Position numbers and translations under genes: made by a program. From Candidatus Moraniibacteriota bacterium (GTDB taxonomy: Bacteria; Patescibacteriota; Minisyncoccia; Moranbacterales; UBA1568): 41,279 nucleotides of DNA. Shown here in pieces: positions 2 to 9,330 of the stretch. Below the pieces are notes generated by a model. The model was not told where the DNA came from. It saw nothing but the letters and a program-made list of their open reading frames with translations, and did no database searches. The stretch covers positions 1 through 41,279 of the forward strand of contig JAAXXG010000001.1 of NCBI GenBank assembly GCA_013334575.1, in the 5' to 3' direction. Positions within the stretch are counted from its first letter, which is position 1. Every line of letters begins with the position of its first letter.

Positions 2-1093
2 AAGTCGTGGAGAATACTCGGAAAATCCATGCGTCCGATTCCGACGGATCACTTCGGCATTGAGGACAAGGAAGAGCTGCTTCGTCGCAGGTATCTTGAT
101 CTGCTTACGAATCCCGAGACGCGTGAGATGTTTCGGAAGAAGAACCTGTTCTGGCAGACGGTACGCACGTTTCTTGCTGGAGAGGGATTCCTCGAGGTGC
201 AGACCCCAGTTTTGGAACATATTCCCGGAGGTGCGGAAGCGGAGCCGTTCGTGACGCATCACAACGCGCTCGATCAGGACTTCTACCTGCGAATCTCGCT
301 CGAGCTCGCGCTGAAGCGTCTGCTCGTCGGCGGCTTCGAGCGCGTCTTCGAGATCGGTCGCGTCTTCCGTAACGAGGGCGTCGACCGCGAGCACCTTCAG
401 GAATTCGATCACATGGAATGCTACGGCGCCTACCTCGACCTTGCGGCCGGGATAGACATGACCGAACGGATGTATCGGGAAATCGTCCGGGTCGTGACCG
501 ATGGCTCCATGAAAACGACGTACGAGGGGATGGAGCTCGACTGGTCGAAGCCGTTCCCGCGCGTCGACTACTTCGAGGCGTTCAAGGCTGAGACCGGCAT
601 CGACCTCTCCGAGGATGTTTCCGTTGAAACGCTCCGTGCCAAGGCGGATGAGCTCGGCATCAAGTACGACGCATCATACGGCAAGGGCCGCATGATCGAC
701 ACGATCTACAAGAAGACCGTCCGTCAGAAACTTATTCAGCCGTGTTTCCTTGTGGGGCATCCGATCGAGGTATCGCCTTTGGCGAAATCGGACCCGACGA
801 ATCCGAGACGGACGCTCCGCATGCAGCCGATAGCGGCCAAGAGCGAACTTGGCAACGGCTTCGCCGAGCTCAACGATCCGGCCGACCAGCGGGTGCGCTT
901 TGAGGAGCAGGTGAGACTCCGCGAGGCGGGTGACGCTGAGGGCATGATGCTCGACGAGGACTTCCTCGAAGCGCTTGAGTACGGCATGCCGCCGGCGTTC
1001 GGTTTCGGCATGAGCGAGCGGCTCTTCGCGGTCCTCATGGACCGTTCCATCCGCGAAACCGTCATCTTCCCGCCGATGCGGAGCCGGGAATAG
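2..1093 (+). CDS. lysS: lysyl-tRNA synthetase, class II (5'-truncated by window edge)
   Basis: This cytoplasmic enzyme charges tRNA-Lys with lysine using ATP. The open frame runs to the window edge. Its first visible residues (KSWRILGKSMRP) match the end of the class II LysRS N-terminal OB domain, so the true start and anticodon-binding domain lie upstream; the ATG at 29 is internal. Visible landmarks are RRRYLDL, the motif 2 region RVFEIGRVFRNEG followed by EFDHMECY, the stretch SPLAK, ELGNGFAELNDP, and motif 3 GFGMSERLF close to the C-terminus. Most LysRS proteins have an aspartate before the motif 3 arginine (DR); here it is ER. The stop is followed by a 231-base gap. Family assignment is firm. 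Confidence 0.95.
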   Translation, partial: KSWRILGKSMRPIPTDHFGIEDKEELLRRRYLDLLTNPETREMFRKKNLFWQTVRTFLAGEGFLEVQTPVLEHIPGGAEAEPFVTHHNALDQDFYLRISLELALKRLLVGGFERVFEIGRVFRNEGVDREHLQEFDHMECYGAYLDLAAGIDMTERMYREIVRVVTDGSMKTTYEGMELDWSKPFPRVDYFEAFKAETGIDLSEDVSVETLRAKADELGIKYDASYGKGRMIDTIYKKTVRQKLIQPCFLVGHPIEVSPLAKSDPTNPRRTLRMQPIAAKSELGNGFAELNDPADQRVRFEEQVRLREAGDAEGMMLDEDFLEALEYGMPPAFGFGMSERLFAVLMDRSIRETVIFPPMRSRE

Positions 1094-1324
1094 GGATGTT
1101 GTCAGCAATAAAAAAACGGAAACGGAAACGAGATCACTCGGTATCAGTACATCCCTGCATGACGCCGTCACGTCAATGCCCTGATATCGGGTTTGCCTTT
1201 CGCTCGCCGCTACTCGGTGATCTTCGTTACCGTTCCGCTATATCATCCGTTTTCGGATGCTGAGGTGATGGTAGCAAAAAGGGCGGCAAAGTCAATAGTG
1301 TGTCCGATTCATTTGTGATCGTGT
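1094..1324. other. intergenic region without a recognisable gene
   Basis: No convincing coding frame is visible between lysS and the Nudix gene. A short palindrome at 1244-1259 (CATCCG-TTTT-CGGATG) could help end the lysS transcript, but there is no T-run after it. AGATCAC near 1131 can pair with GTGATCT near 1217, which is too little to claim an RNA element. Confidence 0.4.
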
Positions 1325-6070: not shown

Positions 6071-6144
6071 GGGCCTGTAGTAAAGTGGTATTACGCAGCA
6101 TTCGCATTGCTGAGTCGGGAGTTCGATTCTCCCCAGGTCCACCA
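6071..6144 (+). tRNA. tRNA-Ala (anticodon CGC), CCA encoded
   Basis: A complete 74-base cloverleaf. The acceptor GGGCCTG pairs with CAGGTCC and includes the G3-U70 wobble that AlaRS recognises, with discriminator A73. The D-arm is GTAA/TTAC, the anticodon arm CAGCA-TTCGCAT-TGCTG, and the T-arm GGGAG-TTCGATT-CTCCC. The anticodon CGC reads GCG codons. The 3' CCA is encoded. A terminator follows 6 bases later. Confidence 0.96.
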
Positions 6145-7498: not shown

Positions 7499-7536
7499 GG
7501 AAAAAATTTCGAGCCGCATGCGTTAGCATACGGCTC
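7499..7536 (-). terminator. intrinsic terminator of the secreted-protein unit (minus strand)
   Basis: Read on the minus strand, GAGCCGTATGC-TAAC-GCATGCGGCTC forms an 11-bp stem with one G-U pair, followed by GAAATTTTTT. It lies about 20 bases after the stop of the minus-strand gene ending at 7558. Confidence 0.85.
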
Positions 7537-7557
7537 GGCCCTTAGGGGGCTTGTTTC

Positions 7558-8283
7558 TCAGAAGTGCGTCGTAAAGCCTACCGTAGCACCATGTCCGAGA
7601 TCTCCGCCGTGGTACGCAGCTTCGAGTGCGACCGCTTTGGAGACGTTGACAGAAATGCCTCCGGCAAGGTCCTTGCGGATCTTGTCCTCTCCGACGTAGA
7701 AGTCGGCTGCGCCGGTTACGGAGAGGTTTTTCGCAGCTTTCACGAGAACTTTTGCTCCCGGAATCATGCGGACGTCTTCCGTTTTGGCGACTTTACCGTT
7801 CCAGGTGGCAAATTTCATGCCGAACGGAACGATAATTTGCCCGCGAACCGTTACTCTATCAGAGGCATCATGTTCGATCGCCGCATAGACGAAGGGAACA
7901 TGGGTTTCTCTGATTGAGTAAGTTGTGTCGGTGTGACAGCTGGGCTCTGCCGGCTTTGGCTGCTCGGGCTGGGTTGGCTGTTCAGGCTCCGTGGGGCACA
8001 CGACAGGCTCCTCGGGCTGAGTCGGGCATACCGGCTGCTCGGGCTGGGTTGGCTGTTCAGGCTGCTCAGGCTGAGTCGGACAGACCGGCTGCTCAGGCTG
8101 AGTCGGGCAGACCGGCTGCTCAGGCTGAGTCGAACATACTGGCTGCTCGTGTCGGTCATGACCTCGAACCATGTGACGCTCCGACCGGTGGGTCGGTGTC
8201 GCGAGTTCGAAATCGCAGGCGTTCGCAGTGTTGCCGATTGCCATGAGCAACGTGAGGAATAAGAATAAAGCGTAGTTTTTCAT
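7558..8283 (-). CDS. secreted Cys/Pro-repeat protein with a beta-rich C-terminal domain
   Basis: A 241-residue exported protein that I do not recognise. It has a Sec signal peptide (MKNYALFLFLTLLMAIGNTANA, cleavage near residue 22). A short His-rich stretch is followed by a repetitive linker (about residues 46-110) made of a nine-residue unit EQPVCPTQP in several copies. Each full unit brings one cysteine, so interchain disulfides are possible. Residues 120-241 alternate in a beta pattern (VTVRGQIIVPFGM, AVALEAAYHGG) and end in GFTTHF. This resembles a beta-barrel or beta-sandwich domain with a terminal aromatic residue. It follows the gene at 8311 by 27 bases and is probably the second gene of its unit. 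Confidence 0.75.
   Translation of the reverse strand: MKNYALFLFLTLLMAIGNTANACDFELATPTHRSERHMVRGHDRHEQPVCSTQPEQPVCPTQPEQPVCPTQPEQPEQPTQPEQPVCPTQPEEPVVCPTEPEQPTQPEQPKPAEPSCHTDTTYSIRETHVPFVYAAIEHDASDRVTVRGQIIVPFGMKFATWNGKVAKTEDVRMIPGAKVLVKAAKNLSVTGAADFYVGEDKIRKDLAGGISVNVSKAVALEAAYHGGDLGHGATVGFTTHF
7954..8148 (-). repeat. 27-bp coding tandem repeat (Cys-Pro-Thr-Gln linker)
   Basis: Imperfect tandem copies of a 27-bp unit encode EQPVCPTQP and shortened EQPTQP variants within the secreted protein. The units drift in sequence but stay in frame, as expected for a selected protein linker rather than a CRISPR or noncoding satellite. Confidence 0.85.
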
Positions 8284-8310: not shown

Positions 8311-9036
8311 TTAGTTGCAGATGGTAATCGTATTGCTTTCCACGGCTTGGCTTCCGATGAAGCCGCCACCGACGTAAACCCGGGTTTTTTCACCAACCTT
8401 GGTACCGATACCGAGGTACCCCCTTTCGAGCTGGTGTTTACCGTTTACGTTATTTCGGTATCCGCCCTCAAAGAGAACGGAAACCTTTTTAACGGGAGGA
8501 ACCTGCGTTGTCGGGGGCTCGGGCCTCGGAGATTCGACGGGAACTGCTGAGAACTCGAGTGGCAGTTCATTTGCACACTTGTCGAATACTCGTAAGGTGC
8601 CGACATACTTATTCTGCCCGGCATCCTGGAGTTTCAACGCGAATGCGTGACCAGCCAGCGGTTCGGTCACCGTGAAGTGTCCGAATACTGTTCCCTTTCC
8701 TGACCCCATATAGGTCATAGTCGTTCCTGCCGGGATGGTGATCGCTACGGCTGATTTCTCCATCAGCTGCTTGGCGATCTGGTTGGAAACGGAGGAACCG
8801 TCCCCGACCAGTCCGGTTTGCGTTGCGATCTGCGCCTCGACTGCTCCTGCGAATGCGGCCTGTTGTTCCGGCGTGGCCTTTTCAAGGGCCACATAGCCTC
8901 CGTCGAATCGCGGTTTGCGGCCGAGCCACTTATAAGTGACCGCGATTTCCTTCGTAACAGCTTGTGCTGTCAGTTGGAATGAACAGGAGAAGAGGAGGAA
9001 TACGGCGACGAATGCGGTGATTCTGTTCTGTTTCAT
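8311..9036 (-). CDS. secreted protein of unknown function
   Basis: An exported protein of about 241 residues with a Sec signal peptide (MKQNRITAFVAVFLLFSCSF, cleavage probably after LTAQA). I prefer the ATG at 9036; another at 9048 would add four residues. The mature part has a helical region rich in Gln/Ala (TPEQQAAFAGAVEAQIA) and a beta region with AITIPAGTTMTYMGSGKG and FGHFTVTEPLAGHAFALKL. A Pro-rich linker (SPRPEPPTTQVPPV) leads to a C-terminal beta segment (VSVLFEGGYRN, TRVYVGGGFIG). The linker plus beta-rich tail mirrors the neighbour at 7558, so the pair may act together at the cell surface. It does not match a family I can name. A strong promoter and a long structured leader precede it. 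Confidence 0.75.
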   Translation of the reverse strand: MKQNRITAFVAVFLLFSCSFQLTAQAVTKEIAVTYKWLGRKPRFDGGYVALEKATPEQQAAFAGAVEAQIATQTGLVGDGSSVSNQIAKQLMEKSAVAITIPAGTTMTYMGSGKGTVFGHFTVTEPLAGHAFALKLQDAGQNKYVGTLRVFDKCANELPLEFSAVPVESPRPEPPTTQVPPVKKVSVLFEGGYRNNVNGKHQLERGYLGIGTKVGEKTRVYVGGGFIGSQAVESNTITICN

Positions 9037-9110
9037 GATTGAATGCATTGAGATTAATGTAAGAGTAAGAACAAAAATATATATGAGATCTATCTATGTA
9101 ATGTAATGTA

Positions 9111-9234
9111 GGATCACGGCGAGCATCCGCCGGTTAAGGGTACGCCGAAGCGTACCAGGCGCGCCGCAGCGCGCGGGAACATATCGACCGCGTTGGCCGC
9201 GCGATGACCTGGAAACAGGTCTACGATATGCTCC
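9111..9234 (-). ncRNA. candidate structured leader RNA upstream of the secreted-protein unit
   Basis: Several perfect hairpins crowd into 120 bases. On the minus strand the 7-bp stem GGTACGC/GCGTACC closes a UUCG loop (9139-9156) and the 6-bp GCGCGC stem closes a UGCG loop (9159-9174), both UNCG tetraloops. Further pairings are a 6-bp GACCTG/CAGGTC hairpin (9206-9221), a 5-bp hairpin at 9117-9132, and a long-range helix pairing 9176-9186 with 9224-9234 around CATATCG/CGATATG. Together they make a multi-branch fold. The UNCG loops favour the minus strand, which is also the transcribed direction. The flanks are A/T-rich. It matches no riboswitch or housekeeping RNA that I know. Confidence 0.5.
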
Positions 9235-9281
9235 GGCCCCGATGACTCGAGGGCTTGAACTTGGCTCTTCTGAGTATTCAT
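9114..9281 (-). CDS. possible 55-residue leader ORF inside the structured region
   Basis: An ATG at 9281 opens a 55-codon frame on the minus strand, ending with TGA at 9114-9116. The product would start MNTQKSQVQALESSG and end PLTGGCSP. Many codons end in G or C as in real genes here, but another frame over the same DNA is also open, and no ribosome binding site is visible. It lies just downstream of the strong promoter and coincides with the hairpin cluster. It could be a leader peptide, a real small protein, or chance. Confidence is low. Confidence 0.25.
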   Translation of the reverse strand: MNTQKSQVQALESSGPEHIVDLFPGHRAANAVDMFPRAAARLVRFGVPLTGGCSP

Positions 9282-9301
9282 TTTTCAACGAACATCATAC
9301 C

Positions 9302-9330
9302 AGTATACATGAAAAAATGACCTTTGTCAA
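9302..9330 (-). promoter_or_regulatory. consensus sigma70-type promoter
   Basis: On the minus strand TTGACA, a 17-base spacer and TATACT form a near-perfect promoter. It points at the two secreted-protein genes and implies a leader of about 250 bases before the first start codon. Confidence 0.85.

What the first reader, a model, noticed from the sequence alone, without database searches (positions are those of the whole stretch)
9111..9234. Hairpin-rich leader RNA before the secreted-protein pair
Five helices including two UNCG tetraloop hairpins and a long-range helix fit in about 120 bases, in a G/C-rich patch surrounded by A/T-rich DNA. It lies between a consensus promoter (9302-9330) and the first gene start (9036), inside a 250-base leader. 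It matches no riboswitch class that I know. It may sense a signal, stabilise the mRNA, or be a separate small RNA.
Basis: partly seen in the sequence, partly recalled or inferred. Interest (0 to 1): 0.62.

Follow-up and report, generated by a model that had tools for sequence, protein, structure and literature searches.

The report
Single-copy structured mRNA leader
A stretch of DNA before two secreted-looking bacterial proteins very probably makes a tightly folded RNA leader, but no relative of it was found anywhere searched, so its role (most likely shielding the message) is an inference.

Summary
On the minus strand, 9234-9111 folds into an 11-bp long-range helix enclosing two hairpins, followed by C(UGCG)G, C(UUCG)G and a weaker third hairpin (-63.6 kcal/mol; 0 of 500 dinucleotide shuffles as stable). 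It lies between an 11-of-12 promoter (9330-9302) and the first gene, in a transcription unit that ends at a terminator (7537-7510). In 441 kb of this genome, clusters of three perfect tetraloop hairpins occur in intergenic DNA only here and in the RNase P RNA gene, and in none of 25 shuffles. Two of the five non-coding cUNCGg hairpins found lie here, both on the predicted transcript strand. No Rfam family matches. No copy was found elsewhere in the genome, in 91 relatives (DNA) or in 378 phylum-wide genomes (single-sequence covariance model). Both downstream proteins are orphans too, so covariation could not be tested. A dispersed mobile palindrome is refuted; a riboswitch has no visible expression platform. 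Best reading: a lineage-specific structured 5' leader that shields the mRNA (RNase J and Y present, RNase E/G not found) and keeps an A/U-rich, Shine-Dalgarno-less start region open. The structure is well supported; the function is inferred.

The parts
9302..9330 (-). sigma-70-type promoter TTGACA-17-TATACT; start of transcription inferred near 9295
   Evidence: 11 of 12 consensus matches; start point inferred, not measured
9236..9254 (-). extra short hairpin GCCC..GGGC just before the reported segment
   Evidence: in the MFE fold of 9111-9255 and of the long leader
9176..9234 (-). three-way junction: 11-bp outer helix (9234-9224/9186-9176) closing hairpins 9221-9206 and 9201-9189
   Evidence: MFE and centroid; pair probabilities 0.77-0.84 outer, 0.98-1.0 first hairpin, 0.46-0.47 second
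9159..9174 (-). hairpin with C(UGCG)G tetraloop, 6 bp
   Evidence: probability 0.99-1.0
9139..9156 (-). hairpin with C(UUCG)G tetraloop, 7 bp
   Evidence: probability 0.99-1.0
9117..9132 (-). last hairpin, register uncertain; no U-run follows, so not a terminator
   Evidence: 0.11-0.20 for this register
9049..9116 (-). A/U-rich (75%) stretch before the start codon, mostly unpaired, without Shine-Dalgarno sequence; inferred ribosome landing zone
   Evidence: sequence; mean unpaired 0.62; lack of SD across the genome sample
8311..9048 (-). first gene, 245 aa, signal-peptide-like start (alternative start at 9036), orphan
7558..8283 (-). second gene, 241 aa, signal-peptide-like start, Pro-rich repeats, orphan outside the repeats
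7510..7537 (-). intrinsic terminator closing the transcription unit
   Evidence: 12-bp stem plus T run
9114..9281 (-). 55-codon open frame overlapping the whole element; considered, not favoured as coding

Best explanation
The element is a structured RNA domain in the 5' leader (about 247 nt, start inferred) of a two-gene mRNA for secreted-looking proteins. A chain of independently folding G/C-rich hairpins, two capped by very stable UNCG loops, forms as the RNA is made. It acts as a barrier to 5'-to-3' decay by RNase J and to internal entry by RNase Y. Because it folds on itself, it keeps the following A/U-rich, Shine-Dalgarno-less stretch single-stranded for ribosome entry. The result would be a long-lived, well-translated message for surface or secreted proteins. 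Shown by computation: fold, strand preference, promoter-like and terminator-like signals, single copy, absence of detectable homologues, RNase J and Y present with no RNase E/G found, near-absence of Shine-Dalgarno sequences. Inferred: transcription, stabilisation, insulation.
For: Fold beyond shuffles on the minus strand and better than on the plus strand. Intergenic clusters of three perfect tetraloop hairpins occur only here and in the RNase P RNA gene in the 441-kb sample, and in 0 of 25 shuffles (RNase P RNA identified). C(UNCG)G loops in 5 of 89 non-coding and 0 of 156 coding perfect tetraloop hairpins, 2 of the 5 here, both in the UNCG sense on the minus strand. Promoter 11 of 12 and terminators bracketing the unit. 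Among the 15 promoter-preceded leaders of 80 nt or more in the sample, this one has the lowest z, -5.34 by mononucleotide shuffles. No terminator inside the leader; start region and A/U tail mostly unpaired. RNase J family protein above cut-off, RNase Y domain found, RNase E/G not found. SD-like strings before 2 of 217 first ATGs against 7 and 10 in the two controls.
Against: No transcript data. No homologue, hence no covariation and no sign of selection. The hairpins start about 40 nt from the inferred 5' end, whereas the classical stabilisers of E. coli ompA and B. subtilis aprE put a stem at the very 5' end (recalled). Equally stable intergenic stretches exist: 7th of 326 by energy, outside the best 25 by z. 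Orphan downstream genes give no functional hint, and their structure models are unusable (mean pLDDT 41.8 and 43.8).
Confidence: 0.42

Rival explanations
1. Unrecognised sensing element: the three-way junction is an aptamer and the leader is a riboswitch or protein-binding switch for the secreted pair.
For: A compact junction in a 5' leader with no Rfam match.
Against: No intrinsic terminator inside the leader, hairpins end about 70 nt before the start codon, start region mostly unpaired. No conserved sequence in 91 relatives or 378 phylum-wide genomes, whereas aptamers are usually the conserved part of a leader (general knowledge).
Confidence: 0.1
2. A separate small RNA, made from the same promoter by processing or early termination, acting in trans.
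For: Dense stable fold comparable only to RNase P RNA in hairpin clustering.
Against: No terminator behind the last hairpin; single orphan copy; reads straight into the 245-aa gene.
Confidence: 0.12
3. A small coding gene or leader peptide: the 55-codon frame 9281-9114 is translated and the palindromes are a by-product of G/C-rich codons.
For: Open frame from just after the inferred start of transcription to the end of the last hairpin; GC1/GC2/GC3 0.68/0.52/0.66.
Against: Codon score +7.3 bits, below two frames that contain stops (+15.2, +15.5); GC2 above all 18 window genes scored (0.31-0.49). No Pfam or PHROG match. In 128 genomes of the order only three short weak matches besides itself, E 0.013-0.064; best of five plasmid matches E 0.09. 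Perfect C(UNCG)G hairpins occur in 0 of 156 coding tetraloop hairpins. A second minus frame is open as well.
Confidence: 0.1
4. A DNA-level palindromic or mobile element that happens to sit behind a promoter.
For: Perfect inverted repeats; G/C-rich patch in A/T-rich surroundings.
Against: Single copy in the genome; none in phage or plasmid collections beyond 24-60-nt chance-level pieces; no convincing flanking direct repeat; UNCG loops and the better fold favour the minus-strand RNA.
Confidence: 0.07
5. Real transcript structure but no selected function: a neutral, recently formed G/C-rich leader in a fast-changing locus.
For: No homologue of the leader or of the two genes (outside Pro-rich repeats) even in five same-genus genomes; comparable stabilities elsewhere.
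Against: Hairpin clustering and two UNCG caps are hard to get by chance.
Confidence: 0.19

Closest known systems
Stabilising 5' leader of E. coli ompA mRNA (and B. subtilis aprE leader)
   Same: Hairpin-rich leader followed by a single-stranded ribosome-entry region, before an abundant envelope or secreted protein. For ompA, PMC7509114 (passages seen) reports a very stable transcript in fast-growing cells and lists the Arnold 1998 paper on protective elements in the 5' leader.
   Different: ompA and aprE carry the stem at or very near the 5' end and use a Shine-Dalgarno sequence (partly recalled). Here about 40 nt precede the first hairpin, there is no Shine-Dalgarno sequence, and no sequence relation is known.
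Riboswitches and other Rfam cis-regulatory leaders
   Same: Junction-containing RNA between promoter and gene.
   Different: No Rfam match at gathering score, and only chance-level ones at E up to 10; no visible expression platform; not conserved.
Dispersed palindromic elements (REP/NEMIS-type)
   Same: G/C-rich palindromes in intergenic DNA.
   Different: Single copy.

Membership tests
Known Rfam RNA family | Score at or above a family's gathering threshold | tested here: not met
   Only a tRNA at 6071-6141 in the window; in the region at E up to 10 four matches far below threshold
Riboswitch | Conserved aptamer in several genomes | tested here: not met
   Nothing beyond its own copy in 54 and 379 genomes by covariance model; by DNA in 92 genomes only three foreign matches of 22-40 nt judged chance
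Riboswitch | Expression platform (terminator or start-site sequestration) | tested here: not met
   No intrinsic terminator in the leader; start region mean unpaired 0.58. Other platforms (Rho, RNase) not testable here
Riboswitch | Ligand binding | not testable with these tools
   Needs in-line probing or similar
Stabilising 5' leader (ompA/aprE type) | Structured region within the 5' leader of an mRNA | tested here: met
   Fold and promoter position; transcription itself inferred
Stabilising 5' leader (ompA/aprE type) | Stem at the extreme 5' end | tested here: inconclusive
   Start near 9295 only inferred; only weak 5' pairing predicted (5' part mean unpaired 0.47)
Stabilising 5' leader (ompA/aprE type) | Longer mRNA half-life with the leader than without | not testable with these tools
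   Needs experiment
Dispersed palindromic repeat (REP/NEMIS) | Many copies in the genome | tested here: not met
   One copy; the next DNA matches span 14-38 nt
Structured RNA by covariation | Compensatory changes among homologues | not tested
   No homologue found to align

The most novel reading that the evidence does not exclude
A species-restricted, newly evolved structured RNA (three-way junction plus a UNCG-capped hairpin chain) that controls a pair of orphan secreted proteins in a small-genome bacterium that hardly uses Shine-Dalgarno initiation, for example as a decay barrier combined with a ribosome landing platform suited to SD-less translation.
Probability: 0.2. Interest if true: 0.5.

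Novelty: new member of a known kind. Interest (0 to 1): 0.3.

Why it matters
If the leader is shown to stabilise its mRNA, it would be an example of how a small-genome bacterium with RNase J and Y, no detectable RNase E/G and almost no Shine-Dalgarno use makes long-lived, translatable messages for secreted proteins. It is also a caution: a strong single-sequence fold without any homologue cannot be promoted to a new RNA class.

Tried and rejected
Rfam at gathering and permissive thresholds: nothing. DNA homologues in the genome: next best is a 38-nt match just upstream of the RNase J open frame plus 14-22-nt pieces; three other genomes gave 22-40-nt matches, one inside a 455-aa coding frame, two in the A/T tail. 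Single-sequence covariance model R1: only itself in 54 and in 379 genomes. In 51 sources (the window and 50 of the 85 loci then held) own copy 158 bits, next 19.2 bits. Exact UUCG-hairpin core as a seed in viral and genome contigs: 10 and 13 unrelated records, none confirmed by R1. Synteny: pyrG-rplI conserved in four of the five other same-genus genomes; the upstream 298-aa gene has a 26-27% homologue near them only in G003, and the secreted pair and leader were not found in any (the single G003 match of the 241-aa protein is in the Pro-rich part). Homologues of the 245-aa protein in genome and viral contigs: none. The 241-aa matches in other genomes (6 of 127) cover only the Pro-rich part. 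Structure models of both proteins too poor to use, so no fold search was made. The first z scan used T instead of U and so missed tetraloop bonuses; it was replaced. A possible 6-bp exchange between the outer helix 5' strand and the last hairpin loop was seen by eye; it is about what chance gives and was dropped. tmRNA, SRP RNA and 6S RNA were not searched for separately. Literature: search listings and abstract starts only, apart from passages of PMC7509114; searches listed no report of this element, which is no proof of absence from print.

Full report
WHAT WAS CHECKED. The segment was read on the minus strand and folded. The reported 124 bases give -63.6 kcal/mol with MFE and centroid identical, z -3.85, 0 of 200 dinucleotide shuffles as stable. 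A repeat with 500 shuffles gives z -4.29, 0 of 500, against z -3.17, 1 of 500 for the plus strand. The helices are an 11-bp outer helix enclosing two hairpins, then hairpins with C(UGCG)G and C(UUCG)G loops, then a last hairpin. In a 347-nt context starting at the inferred first base, pair probabilities are 0.77-0.84 for the outer helix, 0.98-1.0 for the first inner hairpin and 0.99-1.0 for both UNCG hairpins, but 0.46-0.47 for the 4-bp inner helix and 0.11-0.20 for the last hairpin in its reported register. A further short hairpin lies at 9254-9236.

IS IT MORE THAN CHANCE. I took 400 kb of the same genome plus the window (441,279 bases, of 1,127,011) as background and called genes crudely by codon score (its limits: it dropped the 241-aa frame and took the wrong strand for the 298-aa frame). 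Best 124-nt windows of 163 intergenic intervals on both strands: the element reaches -65.1 kcal/mol, z -5.19; it is 7th of 326 by energy and not among the best 25 by z. Several of those ahead look like terminators or long palindromes (my reading). A more specific test: clusters of three or more perfect hairpins (stem at least 6, loop 4) within 150 nt of intergenic DNA occur at two loci, this one and one in L046, and at none in each of 25 shuffled versions of all intervals. The L046 locus is the RNase P RNA gene. A looser version of the scan that used another definition of non-coding also gave a cluster next to a tRNA in L040. With loops of 3-6 and a 110-nt limit the count was two loci (this one and L040 5280-5364), with one locus in 4 of 25 shuffles; a cluster of four was found nowhere. 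C(UNCG)G loops occur in 5 of 89 non-coding and 0 of 156 coding perfect tetraloop hairpins; two of the five are in this element, both in the UNCG sense on the minus strand. The fold is therefore real in the sense that composition does not explain it, and the favoured strand is the one predicted from the promoter.

TRANSCRIPTION UNIT. The promoter TTGACA-17-TATACT at 9330-9302 has 11 of 12 matches. An intrinsic terminator of the upstream 298-aa gene lies at 9491-9462, and one behind the second gene at 7537-7510. The two genes are 27 bases apart. Nothing terminator-like lies within the leader on the minus strand. Of 39 promoter-gene pairs found in the sample, 15 have leaders of 80 nt or more; this one, 247 nt, has the lowest z of the 15 (-5.34, mononucleotide shuffles), although two other leaders have more energy per base.

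NO RELATIVES. Rfam gives nothing. DNA search finds only its own copy in the genome; the next matches are short. Among 92 relatives including its own genome, four have a match at E up to 0.01; the three foreign ones are 22-40 nt and lie in a coding frame or in the A/T tail. A covariance model from this one sequence finds only itself in 54 relatives and in 379 genomes drawn from the phylum; such a model is only modestly more sensitive than sequence search, and both runs used the stricter filters. Phage and plasmid records give only pieces at E 0.08 or worse. The 245-aa protein has no relative in 27 other genomes of the family, nor in genome or viral contigs. The 241-aa protein has matches in 6 of 127 other genomes, all within the Pro-rich part. 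The neighbourhood changes quickly: pyrG and rplI are conserved in four of five other same-genus genomes, and only G003 keeps a 26% homologue of the 298-aa gene nearby.

ALTERNATIVES. A 55-codon frame (9281-9114) spans the element. Its codon score (+7.3 bits) is lower than that of two frames interrupted by stops (+15.2 and +15.5), its second-position GC (0.52) exceeds all 18 window genes scored (0.31-0.49), and no convincing protein relative was found. At this base composition an open frame of that length is expected in roughly one of four or five tries (my estimate). A mobile palindrome is excluded by copy number. A riboswitch lacks a visible expression platform and conservation.

MECHANISM. 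The genome has an RNase J family protein above the curated cut-off and an RNase Y domain; no RNase E/G match was found while the control rang in 6 of 14 known genomes. Shine-Dalgarno-like strings precede 2 of 217 first ATGs, fewer than in two controls (7 and 10), while the anti-Shine-Dalgarno sequence is intact in the 16S rRNA gene. In such a cell a leader made of self-contained hairpins followed by an A/U-rich open stretch is well suited to slow decay and to leave the start region free; the tail and start region are predicted mostly unpaired (0.62 and 0.58). This resembles the ompA leader in plan (PMC7509114 passages, and recall), but the stem is not at the 5' end and no half-life is known. 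The structure and its place are supported; stabilisation and insulation are inferred.

VERDICT. A strongly folded, single-copy leader RNA found in one species only, of a known general kind, with inferred function. Interest is modest unless transcript data or strain variation show selection on the pairs.

Noticed in passing
own genome sample (window and L039-L058): Almost no Shine-Dalgarno sequences (2 of 217 first ATGs, below controls), a strong T at position -1 (61%) and A at -11 and -6, although the 16S 3' end keeps an intact anti-Shine-Dalgarno. The start rule of this lineage looks unusual.
   Followed up: partly
L040:890-1105: A hairpin-rich stretch of about 180 bp is flanked by two copies of a segment of at least 33 bases that covers the 3' end of a tRNA gene (1087-1159, minus strand) and its trailer, like an attachment-site duplication.
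   Followed up: no
L052:9195-9318: Long palindrome with TCATTCCCGCGAAGGCGGGAATC arms, z -8.53, of the dispersed-repeat type by its look.
   Followed up: no
G000:C19:30418-31402: The 16S rRNA model matches in two adjoining pieces covering model positions 547-1520; the first third is missing, probably because the contig (31,424 bases) ends there.
   Followed up: no
window 7558-8283: The 241-aa secreted-looking protein carries PEQPVCPTQ-type repeats between its signal-like start and a C-terminal part without relatives.
   Followed up: partly
L025:8203-9531: In the same-genus genome G003 a signal-peptidase-like gene sits beside a TasA-like secreted protein (my reading of the open frames) a few kb from the homologue of the 298-aa gene.
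   Followed up: no
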